Shown: one piece after another, positions 9,932 to 48,093 of the stretch
Numbering within the stretch: position 1 is the first letter of the stretch
How the letters are laid out: every line of letters begins with the position of its first letter
Origin: Campylobacter curvus
GTDB taxonomy: Bacteria; Campylobacterota; Campylobacteria; Campylobacterales; Campylobacteraceae
NCBI RefSeq assembly: GCF_013372125.1
Contig: NZ_CP053826.1
Location: 868,001 to 932,000, forward strand
DNA: 64,000 bases
Reading direction: 5' to 3'
Program-made: the position numbers and the translations under genes
The notes under the pieces: generated by a model
The model's database searches: none
What the model was told of the DNA's origin: nothing
The model's input: only the letters and a program-made list of their open reading frames with translations

Positions 9932-10749
9932 GTTTCAAATTCCAAAGAAATGACCTTTAACATAAACGAAAATATATCGCGCATCATGAAAACATCGTTT
10001 CAAATTCCAAAGAAATGACCTTTAACCTCATGGAACGTAGCTGAAATATTATCCCCACCCTCGTTTCAAATTCCAAAGAAATGACCTTTAACCAAAGGAT
10101 TTTTATCGATTATTTCATCTTGCAGCGCGTTTCAAATTCCAAAGAAATGACCTTTAACTCCACTCTCATTTTAAATGCAAGAGACTCTCATTTGTTTCAA
10201 ATTCCAAAGAAATGACCTTTAACAAGCTTGCAAGCTTTCTTAAAAGCTTCATCGACTGCGTTTCAAATTCCAAAGAAATGACCTTTAACTACAACTATAT
10301 TTTTACCATTTCTGACCGCTTCTTGTTTCAAATTCCAAAGAAATGACCTTTAACGCCAACCCGGTGAAAATTTCAATACTTTTACAGGGTTTCAAATTCC
10401 AAAGAAATGACCTTTAACCTAGCAATACGCCACTTTTGGGGCTTAGCCTAGTAGTTTCAAATTCCAAAGAAATGACCTTTAACCCGCCATAGCTCTTGGA
10501 GCTTTTTTGCAATGCGGTTTCAAATTCCAAAGAAATGACCTTTAACATACATTTGACATAGGAGAATACAATGTTTCACATACGGTTTCAAATTCCAAAG
10601 AAATGACCTTTAACTATGAGCATCCTTGTCATCCTCTGCCTTATTGCCTAGTTTCAAATTCCAAAGAAATGACCTTTAACGAAAGATTGAAGCCAAAAAT
10701 TTTTATTCAAAATTATACCGTTTCAAATTCCAAAGAAATGACCTTTAAT
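9932..10749 (-). CRISPR. CRISPR array 1: 13 repeats of 30 bp, 12 spacers
   Basis: A 30-bp unit starts at 9932, 9997, 10063, 10129, 10194, 10260, 10325, 10389, 10454, 10517, 10585, 10651 and 10720. Spacers are 33-39 bp. Read leftwards, the repeat begins GTTAAAGGTC and ends TTGGAATTTGAAAC, matching array 2 at 25 of 30 positions, so the crRNA sense is the minus strand. All copies appear identical except the rightmost, whose outer base is changed. No cas genes are adjacent; the cas locus starts 27 kb away. No spacer was recognised by eye as matching elsewhere in the window. Confidence 0.97.
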
Positions 10750-10895
10750 AGCGTATAAAGATAAAAATATAGGCCTATTAAAAGTCAAGGCCTATGTTTT
10801 TACTCCTTAAATCAGCTAATGTTTAAAATATTTGACGATTAGAAAAGAGCCAATACGTATTATCAAAAGCTTAAAAAACACTTCGATCGTCTGAA
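10750..10895 (-). promoter_or_regulatory. Probable leader of CRISPR array 1
   Basis: This AT-rich stretch lies at the GTTAAA side of the array, the expected leader side. On the minus strand it carries GACTTTTAAT, ending 27 bases before the first repeat; the same ten bases occur 33 bases before the first repeat of array 2. It also holds a short inverted repeat around AGGCCTA/TAGGCCT. Confidence 0.6.
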
Positions 10896-38098: not shown

Positions 38099-38776
38099 AT
38101 GCTAACGATAAACGCAAAGCTGCCAACGCGAAATTTACGCGTCTCAAAGGCGCTACCCCAGCTCATACAAGGCTTCATATATCGCTATTTGCCAGCCGAG
38201 GAGCACGCAGGATACAGACACGAAAAAACGGGCAAAATTTTTAAGCGGATGAATTTTGATTTTTATTTGAGCGGGGCGGATCTGCGCGTTAGATTTACGT
38301 CTTACGAGCCTGAATTTGAAAAAGCGGTCGCACTTGGAGCGCTAAAAGACGGGTTAAATTTGGGCGAACTGTGCTTCTTGGATACTACGGTGGCGGTGAG
38401 CGAGCATAGGACGAATAGCGATGATGTGGTGCTGCAAGGCTGCGTGGCGTGCGCGGTGCAGGGGCTTTTAGGGCATAAAATTTATTTGCAGGCGCAGGAT
38501 AGCAGGCATCTTGAAATGATGAAGTCTAACGCCTTGCAGCGCTTCGAGACGCTGACCGGGCGCGAATACGGCGGCGAATTCGAGCTAAATTTAAAGTGGC
38601 AAAATTTACAAAAGCCTTTTTATTTTTACTACGGCAATAACCAAACGCCCGTAATTGCTTGGCAGGCAAAATGGCACATGCAGGCTCGGCCCGAGCTAAT
38701 AAATCTAATCCTGGACGCAGGCGTGGGAAGCGGATGTATGAACTACGGGGTTGGGTTTTTGGAGGTGGTGGAGTGA
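38099..38776 (+). CDS. cas6: Cas6, crRNA-processing endoribonuclease
   Basis: The 225-aa protein ends with the glycine-rich loop AGVGSGCMNYGVGFLEVV, the defining Cas6 motif, preceded by two ferredoxin-like halves. It cuts precursor crRNA within the repeat and leaves an 8-nt handle, here ATTTGAAAC-like on both arrays. It is the first gene of the cas locus but separated from cas8 by 211 bp. Its base composition is close to host and to cas4-cas2-cas1, richer in G+C than cas8-cas3. Confidence 0.93.
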   Translation: MLTINAKLPTRNLRVSKALPQLIQGFIYRYLPAEEHAGYRHEKTGKIFKRMNFDFYLSGADLRVRFTSYEPEFEKAVALGALKDGLNLGELCFLDTTVAVSEHRTNSDDVVLQGCVACAVQGLLGHKIYLQAQDSRHLEMMKSNALQRFETLTGREYGGEFELNLKWQNLQKPFYFYYGNNQTPVIAWQAKWHMQARPELINLILDAGVGSGCMNYGVGFLEVVE

Positions 38777-38778
38777 TG

Positions 38779-38915
38779 GTTTGATAGCATTTAATGATAT
38801 AGTACTAATTTCAAATCCTAAAAAGGAAAAAATATTGTGCTATCAAACATATTCTCTTTTGAATAGTAGTATGTTTTATATTAAGAGAATATTATCTGGA
38901 AAGTTTCATATTTAA
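38779..38915. other. Structured cas6-cas8 intergenic region with a degenerate repeat; CreTA-like candidate
   Basis: Two inverted repeats lie side by side: GTTTGATAGCA (38779-38789) with 38838-38848, then ATATTCTCTT (38849-38858) with 38883-38892. On the minus strand, about 38808-38837 reads ATATTTTTTCC, a few bases, then AGGATTTGAAAT, a degenerate form of the CRISPR repeats; a second handle-like ATATGAAAC ends at 38903. CreTA RNA toxin-antitoxin pairs, whose antitoxin mimics a crRNA, lie between cas6 and cas8 in haloarchaeal type I-B loci. Confidence 0.4.
38835..38915 (+). CDS. Possible 26-aa mini-ORF in the cas6-cas8 gap
   Basis: A TTG at 38835, 8 bases after AAAAAGGA, opens MCYQTYSLLNSSMFYIKRIL then SGKFHI and a stop. 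It spans both inverted repeats. In CreT the toxic RNA carries a mini-ORF with a strong ribosome site. AGA and ATA codons occur here but are not rare in Campylobacter, so a tRNA-trapping role is not directly supported. It may be a chance frame. Confidence 0.25.
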   Translation: MCYQTYSLLNSSMFYIKRILSGKFHI

Positions 38916-38987
38916 TAATATAATACTATAAGTTAAGGTTAAGTCTTTAGGTGCTAAAATTACTTTTAAATTTTTAAGGAATATGTA

Positions 38988-40400
38988 ATGAATTTAGATT
39001 TTTCCTTGCCATGCGGTGATCCTTTTGTGGAAAACGGTAGGCTTGGACTTACAGAATTCGCCAAGAAAAATAAATTTAAATATGAGGATGAACTAAAAGC
39101 TAATTTGGAAAGAATTTTGAGATTATATACTCAAATTTGGACGCAAAGTAAGCTTTCTAGCTTTTGGCTTCATGGGGCAAATAAAAGACCTGCCAAAGAA
39201 ACTTTAAAAAAGATTGATGAGGTCTTAAAAAATAAGCCCATAATAGGTTCACCCTGTGTATGTTGTGGTAAAAAAGAGGTGATTTCTACAGAAATTTCCT
39301 CAGGAGACAGAACTATTTTACCGCTTGGATTTTCTGCGCCGAATTCAAATTTTTCTTCATCTTTTCAAGAGGCTATGATATGCAAAAACTGCTTTATTTC
39401 GCTTTTAGCTTTACCTTTAAATACGGTTCAAGTGGATGGTAAATTACTTTTTATAAGATCATCTAACGAGATAAATGAATATTGGACACAGAAAAATATA
39501 CGTGAGATAAATAAGATGTTTCTTCTGTCACCAAACGAATCATTGATAATATCAGAGATAAGATATATCGAGAATTTTATTTATATATTTTTGGAGGAGT
39601 TGGTGGAAAATATACCAAATGCCGTTCAAAACGATATATCTTTTTATCATTTTACTAATTTTGGAGCATCTCCTGATATTCAAATTTACCATATTTATAC
39701 TGATCTTACATCTTTTATACAAGAAATTTCACCAAAATATTTAAAAGATCAAATAAGCGGTAATAAGAAGGTTTTAAATTTATGGAACGATATCGTAAGA
39801 AGTAGTTTTAAATTTTTAAAACTAGAAAACGATCAGCTATATTTGAATGATAAAAAAGAATTTAAAAATATAAGCTTTAATGAAGCGAAAAAACTTTGCA
39901 AAAACGTCTTAATATCTAAATTTATAAATGGCAAGGATATAAGACGGATATTAATAAGAAAATTTATAAGTGATATAAAGGATGAAGTAAATAAGGAAAA
40001 TTTAAAAGATTTGGCACAAGCTTATAGAATTTTGATATTTAAATACTTAATAAAGGTAAAACATATGAACAAAGAAAGACTAGACTTTTTAAAAAAGGTC
40101 GCTGCTAAAATAGCAACTTTGCAAAATGCAAAGAAGCGCCTGAATGAGCTCGGAAGACAAAGGACTTTGAGCGAATTCAGAACGCTTTTGATACGTATTT
40201 TTAAGGATTACGCCAAAGAAAGTAACGATAAGTTGCTGTTTAGCGTAGATGATTTCGTATCAAAAATTCTACCTGCGGATAGCTACTTTGCCGAGACAAG
40301 AGATATATTATTTGTCGCTATTTTTGAACAGATGGCAAATAGCCTAACAGAAGATGAGATAGATGAAATGAAAATCATACAAGGAGAGGATAATGAGTGA
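38988..40400 (+). CDS. cas8b: Cas8b (Cst1-like CXXC-CXXC protein), large Cascade subunit
   Basis: The 470-aa protein has paired zinc-type motifs CVCC (about residue 86) and CKNC (about 128), the CXXC-CXXC signature of Cst1 of the Tneap-type I-B system. The rest is helical and poorly conserved, as usual for large subunits. It should recognise the PAM and help bind target DNA. It starts after AAGGAATATGTA and overlaps cas7 by 8 bp. Codons are markedly more AT-rich than those of cas6. Confidence 0.85.
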   Translation: MNLDFSLPCGDPFVENGRLGLTEFAKKNKFKYEDELKANLERILRLYTQIWTQSKLSSFWLHGANKRPAKETLKKIDEVLKNKPIIGSPCVCCGKKEVISTEISSGDRTILPLGFSAPNSNFSSSFQEAMICKNCFISLLALPLNTVQVDGKLLFIRSSNEINEYWTQKNIREINKMFLLSPNESLIISEIRYIENFIYIFLEELVENIPNAVQNDISFYHFTNFGASPDIQIYHIYTDLTSFIQEISPKYLKDQISGNKKVLNLWNDIVRSSFKFLKLENDQLYLNDKKEFKNISFNEAKKLCKNVLISKFINGKDIRRILIRKFISDIKDEVNKENLKDLAQAYRILIFKYLIKVKHMNKERLDFLKKVAAKIATLQNAKKRLNELGRQRTLSEFRTLLIRIFKDYAKESNDKLLFSVDDFVSKILPADSYFAETRDILFVAIFEQMANSLTEDEIDEMKIIQGEDNE

Positions 40401-41487
40401 TATTCAAAACTATTTTATACATGGGCTGGTTTTGATAGATGTCGATGGCGTTAGACTAAATAATCTTGGCATAGATAATAGCGCCACCAACGAGAATAAA
40501 ACTTTGACAAAGACTATAAGAAAAGGTAGGGAAATTTATCCTTTTGTTTCCGGTCAGGCTTGGAGATATTGGTGGAGAGAGGCTTGCTTTATACAAGGCT
40601 GGCAGTTAAGTCCTATCACAAATGTAAAAGGACAGCAGTATATAACAAAAGCCGATCCTTTCATGTATGCAGATGATGATTTATTCGGCTATATGAGTGC
40701 TCAAAAAGAAGAAATCGCAGAAGAAGATGGCGAAGAGTCCTCAAAAAAGAGTAAAAAACCAAAGACGAAAGATATAACGCTTACCAGGACAAGTCCGCTT
40801 AAAAATTCTATCCTGGTTGCCGTGAATACAACCAAACCGCTTGATGAATTTTGCTCTATGACCAGGCAGGACGATACACCTGCACTTTATAGTAGAGAAA
40901 TTTATTCTACTACATTAAAAGGCATGTTTTCGTTAGACTTAGATCAGGCGGGAACTTTTGTATCTATGAATCGCTCCGGCTATCAAAATATATCAAAAGA
41001 GAGTTTTAAAGAGCAATTAAGTAACAATGCTAGAGTTATAAAGGATAAAAAATACGAAGGTGTTGAAAAAATCAGGCTTGACAATAAAACAAGAGCCAAG
41101 AGGATAAGCGAGCTCATATCTGCGCTTAAAATTTTAGATGGAGGTGCCGGTAGAACGACAAACTATGCAAGCGTAAGACCTGATTTTATAATACTTTGTG
41201 TATTAAAAGGCGGTAGCAATCCTTTTGGCGGTATTTTATTTGACGATAAGGGTAAAATAGAGTCTTTGGGAGAAATTTTACAAGACATCGCAAAAGACTA
41301 TCAAGATTATATTTTAAGTGATATATACATAGGCAAGGATGCTTCATTTATGAAAAATGTAGATTTGGACTTAAAGGAGCTTTCAAATTTATCCGGAAAA
41401 ATTAAATTTCATATCGGAAATGTAGGAGAAACAATAGATAAATTTGTATCTGAAAATATAGAAAAAATCATAAATCAAATGGAATAA
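40393..41487 (+). CDS. cas7: Cas7 (Cst2/DevR family), Cascade backbone
   Basis: The 364-aa protein starts YFIHGLVLIDVDGVRLNNLG and has IRKGREIYPFVSGQAWRYWW and ITLTRTSPLKNSILVAV, the pattern of the Cst2/DevR Cas7 family; GGAGRTTNYASVRPDF follows near residue 250. Several copies coat the crRNA spacer. A charged loop (KSKKPKTKD, about 115-128) interrupts the fold. It lies between cas8 and cas5 with a 2-bp gap. Confidence 0.92.
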   Translation: MSDIQNYFIHGLVLIDVDGVRLNNLGIDNSATNENKTLTKTIRKGREIYPFVSGQAWRYWWREACFIQGWQLSPITNVKGQQYITKADPFMYADDDLFGYMSAQKEEIAEEDGEESSKKSKKPKTKDITLTRTSPLKNSILVAVNTTKPLDEFCSMTRQDDTPALYSREIYSTTLKGMFSLDLDQAGTFVSMNRSGYQNISKESFKEQLSNNARVIKDKKYEGVEKIRLDNKTRAKRISELISALKILDGGAGRTTNYASVRPDFIILCVLKGGSNPFGGILFDDKGKIESLGEILQDIAKDYQDYILSDIYIGKDASFMKNVDLDLKELSNLSGKIKFHIGNVGETIDKFVSENIEKIINQME

Positions 41488-41489
41488 CA

Positions 41490-42257
41490 ATGAGACTTTT
41501 TAGGGTTTTGTTATCATCTATCAGTGCTAGTTTTAGATATCCTAATATGATGATAAATAACCAATTAAGCATAAAATCAATGCCTTATAGCACCCTGCAA
41601 GGTCTTATAGCGGCGGCGTATGGCTCTTATGATTTTAAGGATTTATCATTTTCTTATATTTTTAGGTATGAGGCTATATTTAAAGATATCGAAACTATCT
41701 ATAAATTTAAAAATGAAAATGGAAAAATAACCGCAAACAAGCCTACAAATTTATCAAAAACCAGAGAATTTTATTATCAAGGCGATATCTATCCTAGTAG
41801 TGATGCTTTTAAAAGAGAACAGCTTTTTAATTGCTATTTGACGCTTTATCTAGACGATGAAGAAGTGGCAAAAAGCTTTTTATCACCCGTGTATCAGCTG
41901 GTTTTTGGTAGAAGCAGCGATTTGGCTCGGGTCGTATCTGTTGATGAGATAACGGCAGTAAAAATAGACGAGATGAATTACTGCGGCACGGTAATTCCTT
42001 TGGATTTTAAAATTTCGGGCGAGCTTTATGCGATGGCTAAAAGTTTTGATTATTTATCGCTTCCACGAAAGCCTATTGATATGGATATTTTTACCATACT
42101 TGACGGACTTGGTAAATTTAAAATACATCCAAAAAATAAATTTGATATGTATTCTTTACAAAATTGGGACTTTAAAAAACCAAATGTCGTAGTAAAACAA
42201 CCTGCCCTTATCGATGAAGAGTTACAAACGCCTATTTTAATGAGGAAATTTTGCTAG
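41490..42257 (+). CDS. cas5: Cas5 (I-B/Tneap), crRNA handle-binding subunit
   Basis: The 255-aa protein begins MRLFRVLLSSISASFRYPNM and has MPYSTLQGLIAAAYG, the N-terminal Cas5 motif (RAMP fold with a loop between strand and helix). Cas5 caps the 5' handle of the crRNA. It overlaps the cas3 start by 7 bp. Confidence 0.9.
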   Translation: MRLFRVLLSSISASFRYPNMMINNQLSIKSMPYSTLQGLIAAAYGSYDFKDLSFSYIFRYEAIFKDIETIYKFKNENGKITANKPTNLSKTREFYYQGDIYPSSDAFKREQLFNCYLTLYLDDEEVAKSFLSPVYQLVFGRSSDLARVVSVDEITAVKIDEMNYCGTVIPLDFKISGELYAMAKSFDYLSLPRKPIDMDIFTILDGLGKFKIHPKNKFDMYSLQNWDFKKPNVVVKQPALIDEELQTPILMRKFC

Positions 42258-44431
42258 CTAAAACGGATGGTCAAAGCTTACAAGAACATAACGGTGCACT
42301 GCTTAGATATTTTGAAAGCTATAAAGACGCGCTTGTTATGCTTCCAACATTGTGCGGATTAAATAACTTTTGGGAGCTTTTAAAAATTGCTATTATTTTT
42401 CATGATTTAGGAAAGAGTGCAAAAGACTTTCAGAATTTGATGAAAAATTTAATAAAATCATATAATTTTAGGCACGAGTGGTTAAGCGGAAGTATTTTGC
42501 TTGATCTTGATATGCCAAAAGATGAAAAAGAGCTAGTGCTAAACGCTATTTTGTCTCATCATAAAAATTTTAAAGAGTTAAAAGATCGATACAAAAAGTG
42601 CCAAAGCACAAAAGAGATGATCGAAGACGGTGATGAGATCGATTTAAAAGAAAACAGAATTTTTGAGAAAGAGATAGATACGCTTGATTTTGCTTGGATA
42701 AAATTGTATTTGGAAAATTTCAAAATTTATATTAAAAATTTTACCAAAACCGATCCGCTAGCATTCGCAAAACCGCTGCCTAAAATTTTACAAAAATGGA
42801 CTACGACGTCAAAGGATAGTATCGGTGAAAAAGAAAAATGGCAAAATATATTTTTGTCGGCGTCTTTGTCCATATGCGATCATAACGCCTCGGCAAATTT
42901 GGATAGAATTTTGATATTAAAAGAGTCAAATTTCGAGTTTTTAAATACTATTTTAAAGCCGTTTAAACACCAGCAAGACTCTTGGTCTTCACAAGATAAT
43001 ATTTTGCTCATAGCACCGACAGGACAAGGTAAAACCGAGTCTGCTCTTGGCTGGCTAAGAAATCAGCTAAAAAATAGGCAAGGCAGAGCGTTTTATCTGC
43101 TGCCTTTTACAGCTTCAATAAATGCGATGGTAAGGCGAGTATCGAAGAATTTTAAAGATGATGGATTAGTGGGGCTTTTACACGCAAAGGCAAAGTTTTT
43201 TATAGACGAATTTTACGAGAAAAAAGACGGACAAACATTTGCGGATATAGCCGATCTAAATAAAAAAGTCTATAAGCCGCTCAAAGTAGCCACTCCATAT
43301 CAAATTTTAAAATGGGCGTTTGGTGTGAAAGGCTTTGAAAAAGGGCTGACCGAGCTTGCCGGAAGCTATTTGATAATCGATGAAATTCACGTTTATAACG
43401 ACGAGCTTTATCAAAATATGTTATTTTTCTTAGAGTGGCTAATTAAAAAATTATGTGTAAAGATTTTCATTATGAGCGCAACTTTGCCTACGTTTATACA
43501 AAAACAGCTTGAAAGCGAGCTAAAAGTTAAAATCATAAAGCCCCAAATAGAGCTTTTACAAAATTTAAAAAGACATAGAATTTCTCTTATCGAAAGCAAA
43601 ATGGAAGATAAAATTTTAGAATATATCAATGGTAAAAATTTGAAAATTCTGATCGTTTGCAACACCGTTTCAAAAGCGCAAGAAATTTATAATCTATTGG
43701 GATGTTACGATTCGAAAATCATGCTTCACAGTAGGTTTAACGCAGCCGATAGAGTAAGGATAGAAGATGAAATACTTACCAAACAGCCTAAAATTTTAAT
43801 AGGAACACAAGCTATTGAAGTTAGTCTGAATATTGATTATGACGTTATATTTAGTGAAATTGCACCGCTTGATTCGCTTCTACAAAGATTTGGGCGGGTG
43901 TATAGAGGCAGAAGGATAAAGCCTGATCAAGAGCCAAATTGTTTCATTTTTACCGATATTGACCCTATTTTTAAGAAAATTTATACAAGACCAAATGTTT
44001 TGGAAAATACGCTAAACGAGCTAAGAAAACACAACGAAGAACAAATCGACGAGGAAAAAGTGCAAACGATGTTGGATAATGTTTATGAACCGATAAAAAT
44101 CGATGAAAATGAGAAGATAATTTTTTTCAAAATGCTTGATGGGCTGTATCCATATAATGTCTATGAAGACAATGAAGAGCAGTTTGATAGCCAGTTCGAT
44201 GGTGTAGAAGTGCTTCCTTGCGAACTAGAAAGTAAATTTGACGAATATATTTCCAAAGGACGATTTTTAGAAGCCGAAAAGCTTTTAGTGCCGATTTCTA
44301 AAACAAAATTTCACCAATATAAGAAGTATGGTTATATATCATCAAAGTTAAAAAAGGGATATGTTAAAATGGTGTGCTTAAAATATGACAACGAGCTCGG
44401 CCTGCTTGAAGCTGGCACCTGTTTTGATTAA
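42251..44431 (+). CDS. cas3: Cas3, target-degrading HD nuclease-helicase
   Basis: The 726-aa protein starts at a TTG within the end of cas5. It has an HD nuclease domain (first metal His in LQEHNG, then FHDLGKSAKDF near residue 50, and LSHHKNF), then a SF2 helicase with LIAPTGQGKTES (about 254), LIIDEIHVYND (DEIH box, about 376), MSATLPTF and RFGRVYRGRR. HD and helicase are fused, in the usual order. All key residues are present, so it looks active. Confidence 0.95.
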   Translation: MLAKTDGQSLQEHNGALLRYFESYKDALVMLPTLCGLNNFWELLKIAIIFHDLGKSAKDFQNLMKNLIKSYNFRHEWLSGSILLDLDMPKDEKELVLNAILSHHKNFKELKDRYKKCQSTKEMIEDGDEIDLKENRIFEKEIDTLDFAWIKLYLENFKIYIKNFTKTDPLAFAKPLPKILQKWTTTSKDSIGEKEKWQNIFLSASLSICDHNASANLDRILILKESNFEFLNTILKPFKHQQDSWSSQDNILLIAPTGQGKTESALGWLRNQLKNRQGRAFYLLPFTASINAMVRRVSKNFKDDGLVGLLHAKAKFFIDEFYEKKDGQTFADIADLNKKVYKPLKVATPYQILKWAFGVKGFEKGLTELAGSYLIIDEIHVYNDELYQNMLFFLEWLIKKLCVKIFIMSATLPTFIQKQLESELKVKIIKPQIELLQNLKRHRISLIESKMEDKILEYINGKNLKILIVCNTVSKAQEIYNLLGCYDSKIMLHSRFNAADRVRIEDEILTKQPKILIGTQAIEVSLNIDYDVIFSEIAPLDSLLQRFGRVYRGRRIKPDQEPNCFIFTDIDPIFKKIYTRPNVLENTLNELRKHNEEQIDEEKVQTMLDNVYEPIKIDENEKIIFFKMLDGLYPYNVYEDNEEQFDSQFDGVEVLPCELESKFDEYISKGRFLEAEKLLVPISKTKFHQYKKYGYISSKLKKGYVKMVCLKYDNELGLLEAGTCFD

Positions 44432-46862: not shown

Positions 46863-47154
46863 GTTAAAATTTATTCCGTTGGAATTTGAAACCTAAAGAT
46901 GAAGTTAGATCTATACTAAAAGAAGCAAAGTTAAAATTTATTCCGTTGGAATTTGAAACAATTCTTTGGCGGGATAATATGCAGGATCATAAAGTTAAAA
47001 TTTATTCCGTTGGAATTTGAAACTACCCTGACAACTGCCGAAAACTTAAAACTGGCAGGTTAAAATTTATTCCGTTGGAATTTGAAACTCCTCAAGGTAG
47101 ATTATGAATTCATCTACGCTGTTGGTTAAAATTTATTCCGTTGGAATTTGAAAC
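46863..47154 (+). CRISPR. CRISPR array 2: 5 direct repeats of 30 bp
   Basis: Repeats start at 46863, 46930, 46994, 47059 and 47125, separated by spacers of 34-37 bp; all five look identical, beginning GTTAAAATTTATTCC and ending TTGGAATTTGAAAC. A 39-bp spacer-like stretch follows the last, then an inverted copy (47194-47223). The leader and cas1 lie on the left, so new spacers should enter there. Repeats match array 1 at 25 of 30 positions. Confidence 0.96.
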
Positions 47155-47193: not shown

Positions 47194-47223
47194 GTTTCGA
47201 ATTCCAACGGAATAAATTTTAAC
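47194..47223 (-). repeat. Inverted terminal repeat of array 2
   Basis: These 30 bp are the reverse complement of the array 2 repeat with one change (GGAATTCGAAAC for GGAATTTGAAAC). With the last direct repeat (47125-47154) it forms a 30-bp inverted pair around 39 bp. The kinase remnant begins at the next base. Confidence 0.93.
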
Positions 47224-47383
47224 AAATAAGGATACGGGCACAGGTATGGGGCTTTATATCGCTAAAATTTTAGCGGTAGAAAAGCTTGGAGGGAGATTTA
47301 TGCTTGAAAGTAGGGCGGATCCTACTAAATTTGCGATCTTTTTAAAGCCTGAAGTCGGGAGCGGACGATGTATAACAAAATAA
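47224..47383 (+). pseudogene. C-terminal remnant of a sensor histidine kinase
   Basis: From the end of the inverted repeat, a frame reads NKDTGTGMGLYIAKILAVEK and LGGRFMLESRADPTKFAIFL to a stop at 47383. GTGMGLYIAK is the G2 box of HATPase_c, so about 50 C-terminal residues remain and everything before, including the phospho-acceptor His, is gone. No N-terminal part was found upstream. The break falls exactly at the CRISPR repeat. Confidence 0.8.
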
Positions 47384-48093
47384 AAGAAATTTTAAAAGAT
47401 GTGAGGCTGCTTATAGTCGAGGATGATGACGAGCTAAGGGCGACTTTAAAGGACTCGGTAGAAAAATACGTAAAGCAAATTTTTGAGTACTCAAATGCCA
47501 AAGACGCGCTGGCGTGTTTTAAACAAAACGATATAAATTTGATCCTCTCTGACATCAATATGCCGCGTATGAGCGAGCCTCAATGCCATCACTCATCAGG
47601 CAGGACGATAAAAATGTGCCGATCATCTTTCTGACAGCTTACGATAGCGACGAGAACATGTTTGAGGCGATCGAGCTTGGCGGCTTTGGAGTGTTCAAAA
47701 AGTCGTTTGAAAAGCGCGAACTCGTGATGATGATGAGCTTTTGGGCGCATAAATTCAAAAGCGATTTTGCCAGCGTCGATCTAAAAAACGGTTTTAGCTT
47801 CAACGCCTTTTCAAGAGAGCTTTTTAAGGATGGCGTAAGTATCGCGCTAACAAAAAAAAGAGCAAAATTTACTCCATCTACTGCTAAAAAACAACGGCAA
47901 AACCGTGAGTTTTGAGATGATATAAAGCTACGTCTGGCAGGAAAGCTGTACCCCCGAGACGATACGAAGCTTTGTTTATAAACTGCGAAAAAAGATCTAT
48001 CCTGAACCCACCAAAAACGCCCAAGGTATGTGGTATCGCTTAAATTTATCGCAAGAAAATCTAAGAACGGTGAATAAAATAACTTATGTTTAA
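47368..48093 (+). pseudogene. Response regulator, broken by frameshifts and a stop
   Basis: The start overlaps the kinase remnant. The receiver reads MYNKIKEILKDVRLLIVEDD and LILSDINMPRM in one frame. After a shift near 47575 it continues VPIIFLTAYDSDENMFEAIE, to about 47850 (SIALTKKRAKF). After another shift it reads LLKNNGKTVSFEMI, an in-frame TAA, then SYVWQESCTPETIRSFVYKL and a normal end. The winged-helix output domain is thus present but unreadable. Loss of its kinase fits decay of the pair. Confidence 0.85.

What the first reader, a model, noticed from the sequence alone, without database searches (positions are those of the whole stretch)
38779..38987. cas6-cas8 gap looks like a CreTA-type guardian RNA module
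Seen: 211 bp with two adjoining perfect inverted repeats (11 bp and 10 bp), a degenerate CRISPR repeat and a second GAAAC-type handle on the minus strand, an ATAT-rich direct repeat (TTTAATGATATAGTACTA against TTTAATAATATAATACTA), and a plus-strand TTG mini-ORF with a ribosome site. Established: CreTA pairs in type I-B loci sit between cas6 and cas8, and their antitoxin mimics a crRNA. Inference: this is a bacterial counterpart that makes cells depend on the effector.
Basis: partly seen in the sequence, partly recalled or inferred. Interest (0 to 1): 0.72.

Follow-up and report, generated by a model that had tools for sequence, protein, structure and literature searches.

The report
Guide RNA throttling its own CRISPR
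The gap between two CRISPR genes seems to encode a small guide RNA, built on a worn CRISPR repeat, that would steer the CRISPR complex onto the switch of its own genes and act as a self-limiting thermostat rather than the toxin guard first suggested.

Summary
The minus strand of the cas6-cas8 gap carries a degenerate CRISPR repeat (hairpin plus TTTGAAAT handle) followed by a pseudo-spacer whose first 19 nt match a site just before cas8, with mismatches only at nt 6 and 12, positions a type I guide does not read. A TTA stands at the PAM place; spacers of sister species independently give TTA (47 of 63 protospacer rows). A like unit, antisense and with TTA, lies in the cas6-cas8 gap of 12 of 13 sister genomes with a related cas6 (one with an extra seed mismatch), and with TCA in a distant relative. 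The 11-bp inverted repeat closes the unit; the 12 sister units have 8-14-bp stems. Here only cas8 follows the targeted site, so I read it as CreR-type cas autorepression, not CreTA. In five sisters a small hydrophobic ORF sits there instead, so a CreTA-like form may exist nearby. The window's effector genes (Cst2 type) differ from the sisters' (Csh2 type in the one typed), yet the unit is present. All evidence is computational: no RNA, processing or repression was measured, and the guide's own promoter is not evident.

The parts
38099..38776 (+). cas6
   Evidence: TIGR01877 E 6.8e-07 but below its cut-off (29.9 vs 58.65 bits); PF01881 38.6 bits, above its cut-off of 23
38779..38848 (-). CreR-type unit as a whole: 5' arm, pseudo-repeat, handle, guide, 3' arm
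   Evidence: Folds as predicted, z -3.34, 0 of 200 shuffles as stable (38776-38850); joint signature; relatives
38838..38848 (-). 5' arm of the closing stem
   Evidence: 11 bp, 0 of 500 shuffles of the flanks
38816..38827 (-). Pseudo-repeat hairpin TCCTTTTTAGGA
   Evidence: Sequence; 4-bp stem in the fold
38808..38815 (-). Handle TTTGAAAT (array repeat ends TTTGAAAC)
   Evidence: 7 of 8 to the array handle; array repeat
38789..38807 (-). Guide nt 1-19 (nt 1 at 38807)
   Evidence: 17 of 19 to the target, mismatches at 6 and 12 only
38779..38789 (-). 3' arm of the closing stem
38910..38928 (-). Target of the guide; holds the -10-like TATAAT at 38919-38924
38929..38931 (-). PAM TTA
   Evidence: TTA in 47 of 63 sister protospacer rows
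38897..38924 (+). Candidate cas8 promoter TGGAAA-16-TATAAT
   Evidence: 10 of 12 matches, but 2 sites found against 1.5 expected by chance
38933..38960 (+). Alternative cas8 promoter TTAAGG-16-TAAAAT, at the place where most sisters have a TTGACA-like -35
   Evidence: Letters; sister comparison by eye; not a hit of the scan
38988..40400 (+). cas8 (Cas8b-like)
   Evidence: PADLOC Cas8b E 1.8e-18; no NCBIfam family
40393..41487 (+). cas7, Cst2 type
   Evidence: TIGR02585 E 1.9e-48
41490..42257 (+). cas5, Cas5t type
   Evidence: TIGR01895 E 2.7e-27, 95.8 bits against a cut-off of 96.7
42251..44431 (+). cas3
   Evidence: TIGR01587 E 4.5e-75
46863..47154 (+). CRISPR array 1, five repeats GTTAAAATTTATTCCGTTGGAATTTGAAAC, four spacers

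Best explanation
The gap encodes, antisense to cas6 and cas8, a CreR-type cas-regulating RNA. Shown by sequence: a degenerate repeat with handle, a guide of about 18-19 nt that matches, with the PAM used by sister systems, a site just before cas8, and a stem that closes the unit. Inferred: the RNA is made from the middle of the gap leftwards; Cas6 cuts the pseudo-repeat to leave the handle; Cascade loads it, binds the site and blocks transcription of cas8-cas7-cas5-cas3 without cleavage because the match is short. Cascade would thus cap its own amount, and the cap would lift when crRNAs or anti-CRISPRs tie Cascade up. The closing stem stands where a second repeat would be and may limit guide length.
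For: Guide-target match with mismatches only at nt 6 and 12. 4 of 2000 shuffles for the joint signature; unique in 64 kb (2 overlapping of 1275 sub-windows). Unit in 12 of 13 sister gaps, antisense and TTA each time. Independent PAM TTA, 47 of 63 rows, 28 of 36 distinct spacers. 56 nt from PAM to cas8 here, 57-58 in seven sisters. Closing stem within 0-5 of 500 shuffles in 12 of 14 units. Known precedent: CreRs repress cas promoters in I-B, I-E and V-A (PMC13131331, passage); nt 6 and 12 are dispensable in CreA (PMC8501985, passages); spacers of 24 bp or less repress without interference in H. hispanica I-B (PMC10989794, abstract and passages).
Against: No transcript data. The guide's own promoter is not evident: in the 20 nt before the 5' arm the best TATAAT match is 4 of 6 here, no better than chance (983 of 1000 shuffles), and the TATAAT of six other units is reached by 47-135 of 1000 shuffles. 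Likeness of the pseudo-repeat to the array repeat is not significant by itself. The PAM was measured for sister systems with another effector; the window's own spacers give TTA in only 5 of 17 rows, all from one spacer. Promoter scans of the cas8 start region are at chance level. Three own-type relatives (G199, G144, G433) have no gap and no unit, and sister G006 has none. In many sisters the 3' arm overlaps the end of cas6, so the pairing might serve cas6 mRNA instead.
Confidence: 0.82

Rival explanations
1. CreTA proper: the guide represses a toxic RNA or peptide made in this gap (for instance from the TTG mini-ORF), so cells depend on Cascade.
For: Same place as creTA of H. hispanica, between cas6 and cas8 (PMC8501985, passage). 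Five sisters have a small ORF 51-66 nt after the PAM.
Against: Here the site is followed by cas8 at 56 nt and no small ORF with a ribosome site was found between. The mini-ORF starts at 38835, upstream of the target at 38910-38928, so a promoter at the target cannot drive it.
Confidence: 0.07
2. A relic: a mini-CRISPR unit or a decayed CreTA/CreR that no longer works in this strain after the effector exchange.
For: The pseudo-repeat is strongly degenerate; the effector type differs from that of the sisters; the guide's own promoter is not evident.
Against: Guide and target still agree at 17 of 19 nt with the two mismatches where they do not count, and the stem is perfect over 11 bp.
Confidence: 0.06
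3. The inverted and direct repeats act as DNA or mRNA elements (operator of a dimeric repressor, or structure at the end of cas6 mRNA), not as a guide RNA.
For: The pairing can form on either strand, and in many sisters one arm lies in the end of cas6. No terminator-like site was found by the scan, so a terminator is not supported.
Against: It does not explain handle, register, PAM and the nt 6/12 pattern.
Confidence: 0.04
4. Chance in AT-rich DNA.
For: A 10-bp or longer perfect inverted repeat arises in 88 of 1000 shuffles of the gap; in longer sister gaps the joint signature arises in up to 73 of 2000.
Against: 4 of 2000 here, unique in the window, and recurring in 12 of 13 sisters with other letters but the same strand and PAM.
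Confidence: 0.01

Closest known systems
CreR, cas-regulating RNA (Liu C. et al. 2023, Cell Host Microbe 31:1481; not held; seen as a citation, described in PMC13131331, and PMC12737573)
   [quoted passage not shown] no toxin gene
   Different: One pseudo-repeat and a stem joining both ends; whether published CreRs have such a stem, or include this group of bacteria, I could not check
CreTA (CreA guide, CreT toxin RNA) of type I-B
   Same: Position between cas6 and cas8 as in H. hispanica; degenerate repeat; seed nt 1-5 and 7-11; short match next to a PAM (PMC8501985, passages)
   Different: No toxin under the targeted site in this window; the target lies before cas8
CrePA (CreA guide, protein toxin CreP), as described in PMC12737573 (passages)
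   Same: For the five sisters with an ORF only: a protein-coding ORF behind a site matched by the guide
   Different: The sister ORFs are 45-55 aa hydrophobic peptides without a Pfam family above cut-off, not KilA-N proteins; toxicity unknown

Membership tests
CreR | Degenerate CRISPR repeat with 5' handle outside the array | tested here: met
   Handle 7 of 8 and hairpin; overall repeat likeness alone only 20 of 300 shuffles
CreR | Guide seed matches a site at the promoter of its own cas operon | tested here: met
   17 of 19 nt, site ends 59 nt before the cas8 start; that this is the promoter rests on weak scan hits and on sister geometry
CreR | PAM beside the target | tested here: met
   TTA, the PAM of sister protospacers in 47 of 63 rows; own spacers inconclusive, 5 of 17 rows
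CreR | No toxin gene under the targeted promoter | tested here: met
   No ORF of 15 or more codons with a ribosome site ending between PAM and cas8
CreR | RNA is made, cut by Cas6 and bound by Cascade | not testable with these tools
   Needs RNA sequencing and pull-down
CreR | Represses cas transcription | not testable with these tools
   Needs a reporter or mRNA measurement
CreTA | Lies in or beside a type I-B cas operon (cas6-cas8 gap in H. hispanica) | tested here: met
CreTA | Guide targets the promoter of a toxin RNA or toxin ORF | tested here: not met
   cas8 alone follows the target; the mini-ORF lies upstream of it
CreTA | Two divergent repeats around the guide (common) or a terminator after it | tested here: inconclusive
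   By eye no second repeat after the guide (printout); no terminator-like site; a closing stem stands there instead

The most novel reading that the evidence does not exclude
The unit beside cas6 is a durable regulatory socket: a stem-closed, one-repeat guide that represses whatever gene starts some 50-65 nt behind its target. In some species that is cas8 (autorepression), in sisters a small membrane peptide (a new peptide form of CreTA), and the socket outlives replacement of the whole effector block by re-matching its guide to the new promoter. CreR and CreTA would then be interconvertible states of one element, and the closing stem a new way to make a short guide that binds but does not cut.
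Probability: 0.33. Interest if true: 0.8.

Novelty: new variant of a known kind. Interest (0 to 1): 0.6.

Why it matters
It extends RNA-based self-control of CRISPR to a further bacterial group, with support from an independently derived PAM and from the guide register. It also gives a set of close relatives in which the same guide position faces either the CRISPR genes or a putative peptide toxin, so whether addiction modules arise from autoregulation, or the reverse, becomes testable by comparing neighbours.

Tried and rejected
Led nowhere: Rfam scan of the window at gathering thresholds, three tRNAs only. Two genome-contig scans, with cas8 and with cas7, gave no relative. Phage searches: two weak rows (E 0.03) for array 1, none for array 2. 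G184 (cas8 in two frames at a contig end, no cas6 found), and the weak hits G139, G205, G398, were not used.

Rejected: the repeat likeness as proof by itself (20 of 300 shuffles). The closing stem in G408 (100 of 500 shuffles) and, as weak, in G022 (41 of 500). A promoter for the guide: not supported. The mini-ORF as toxin, on position. G175: a sense-strand unit before cas8 with a 15-nt match (0 of 1000 shuffles) was left out of the counts because the contig looks Bacteroidota-like (by eye) and its PAM place reads TAT. For G034 and G040 the best unrestricted 16-nt match is a tie at another site (12 of 16), so these two rest on the strict test. In the sliding test of 13 sister loci 35 of 3203 sub-windows hit, 7 of them away from the gap, in or beside the arrays of G003 and G028. 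In the PAM count, copies preceded by a repeat end were dropped; at least three remaining rows (L030, L036, L073, none TTA) look like locus or array sequence but were kept in the 63.

Not used: structure prediction, fold search, PDB sequence search, viral-contig scans, RNA model building.

Full report
Observation. What ties them together is this: on the minus strand the degenerate repeat (hairpin TCCTTTTTAGGA, handle TTTGAAAT, 38827-38808) runs straight into one copy of the direct repeat, and the other copy lies just before cas8. Read as guide (nt 1 at 38807) and target (38928-38910), 17 of 19 nt agree and the two mismatches are nt 6 and 12. For CreA of type I-B it has been shown by mutation that nt 6 and 12 do not take part in pairing and that nt 1-5 and 7-11 form the seed (PMC8501985, passages). 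TTA stands at the PAM place.

Chance. In 2000 dinucleotide shuffles of the gap plus 40 nt of cas6, a handle (6 of 8) followed by a seed match to a site after TTA arose 4 times. A stricter 14-nt form appears in 2 of 1275 sliding sub-windows of the 64 kb, both at this gap. For the 11 other regions that pass, shuffles reach the signature in 1 to 73 of 2000, most often in the long gaps of G026 and G014. The likeness of the gap to the array repeat alone is not significant (20 of 300).

Relatives. The window's cas8 was found in 1 of 48 genomes of the genus, its own. Its cas6 has relatives (65-79% identity) in 13 of the 47 others. In the 12 of these whose locus was held through cas1, cas4, cas2 and cas1 are alike too (68-82, 84-91 and 80-87%; cas1 of G022 in two pieces), while the window's cas8, cas7 and cas5 gave no tblastn match there at E 1e-3 and cas3 only 26-30%. 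The one sister block typed (G016) is Csh2/Cas5h, the window's is Cst2/Cas5t (the Cas5t score is just below cut-off). The sister cas8, cas7, cas5 and cas3 link into one BLAST cluster each. So the effector block seems to have been exchanged between the lineages.

Sister gaps. Of 15 regions examined (window, 13 sisters, G408), 12 pass the strict test with TTA: window, G037, G034, G038, G026, G016, G022, G014, G003, G028, G041, G040. G045 has the unit with one extra mismatch at nt 8 and TTA; G408, a relative by effector from another family, has it with handle 5 of 8 and TCA; G006 (63-nt gap) has none. The 14 units are all antisense to cas6. In the 12 units other than G034 and G040, 11 of 12 mismatches in nt 1-15 fall at nt 6 or 12. 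The search that found them allowed a mismatch at nt 6, but nothing in it favours nt 12 over 13-15. Several sisters look like close kin (G016/G028, G026/G014, G034/G040, G041/G045), so the units are not independent. Among relatives with the window's effector type, G199 has cas6 overlapping cas8, and G144 and G433 have what I read by eye as the end of a cas6-like frame running into cas8; these three have no gap and no unit.

PAM. 361 spacers of ten sister arrays (351 distinct) were compared with the loci held, among them those brought in by 31 G016 spacers over 48 genomes. Of 63 protospacer rows (85% identity or more, copies behind a repeat end dropped) 47 have TTA, and 28 of 36 distinct spacers have it at least once. 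The self-targets, which are a separate set, have TTA in 13 of 14 units. For the window's own 16 spacers the result is thin: 17 rows at 75% identity or more, TTA in 5, all from one spacer of array 2. The PAM of this Cst2-type effector is thus inferred.

Structure. The 11-bp inverted repeat encloses pseudo-repeat and guide. Each of the 14 units has such a stem (7-14 bp), with the 3' arm starting 14-25 nt after the guide start; shuffles of the flanks reach it in 0-5 of 500 for 12 units, 41 for G022, 100 for G408. By eye there are about six different arm sequences. The closing stem is in the predicted fold of all 14, and the window unit folds with z -3.34. In many sisters the 3' arm lies in the end of cas6, so the pairing could also form in cas6 mRNA. 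Promoters for the guide are not evident: a perfect TATAAT lies 4-8 nt before the 5' arm in six units, but simple shuffles reach that in 47-135 of 1000, and the window has at best 4 of 6 in the last 20 nt (983 of 1000 shuffles); a TACTAT lies 14 nt before its arm.

What is controlled. From PAM to cas8 start is 56 nt in the window and 57-58 in seven sisters (G034, G016, G022, G028, G045, G041, G040), with no ORF of 15 or more codons with a ribosome site ending between; in G408 it is 128 nt. In five (G037, G038, G026, G014, G003) an ORF of 45 or 55 codons starts 51-66 nt after the PAM and cas8 follows later (G037 and G003 also list a 21- and a 17-codon ORF at +1). These ORFs form two families with a hydrophobic stretch; Pfam shows none above cut-off. 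The 45-aa family was found in 3 of 48 genomes, each time at this locus, and between G037 and G026 differs mostly at third codon positions (12, 10, 23). I did not search for the 55-aa family. That these are toxins is a guess.

Mechanism and limits. A short guide fits repression without cutting: in H. hispanica I-B, with a 24-bp spacer interference and primed adaptation disappeared while the target gene fell to about a tenth (PMC10989794, abstract and passages). I therefore read the unit as CreR. Reviews describe CreR as mediating autorepression in type I-B, I-E and V-A (PMC13131331, passages), as a regulator of cas expression released by crRNAs or anti-CRISPRs (PMC12737573, passages), and as a mini-CRISPR regulatory RNA (PMC12948488, passage). 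The primary paper is not held; of PMC9458426 I saw passages. Searches for CreR and cas-regulating RNA brought up no primary paper on it, and three papers holding CreTA and Campylobacter were seen only in the listing, so I cannot say whether these loci are already in print.

Noticed in passing
9932-10760: A second CRISPR array on the minus strand, 13 repeats GTTAAAGGTCATTTCTTTGGAATTTGAAAC (12 spacers), with another repeat than array 1 but the same 3' end. I did not look for cas genes of its own.
   Followed up: partly
47194-47223: Behind array 1 stands one more repeat copy in inverted orientation, GTTAAAATTTATTCCGTTGGAATTCGAAAC on the minus strand.
   Followed up: no
38988-44431: The effector block cas8-cas7-cas5-cas3 is of another I-B type (Cst2) than in the sister genomes, while cas6, cas4, cas2 and cas1 around it are close to theirs: an exchanged module.
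   Followed up: partly
L072, L074, L075, L079, L080: cas6-cas8 gap: Small hydrophobic ORFs (45 or 55 aa, two families) behind the site matched by the guide in five sisters: candidates for a peptide form of CreTA.
   Followed up: partly
L019 (contig G175:C11), upstream of cas8: A sense-strand unit GGATTGAAAT followed by 15 nt that recur before a promoter-like stretch of cas8; 0 of 1000 shuffles. The contig looks Bacteroidota-like by eye, perhaps a foreign contig in that assembly.
   Followed up: partly
47368-47915: Two overlapping ORFs in different frames beside array 1 (88 and 110 aa) that by eye read like pieces of one response regulator.
   Followed up: no
L084 (G040), cas6: cas6 of this sister matches in two pieces, one with a stop codon, so it may be broken there, although the guide unit is intact in form.
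   Followed up: no
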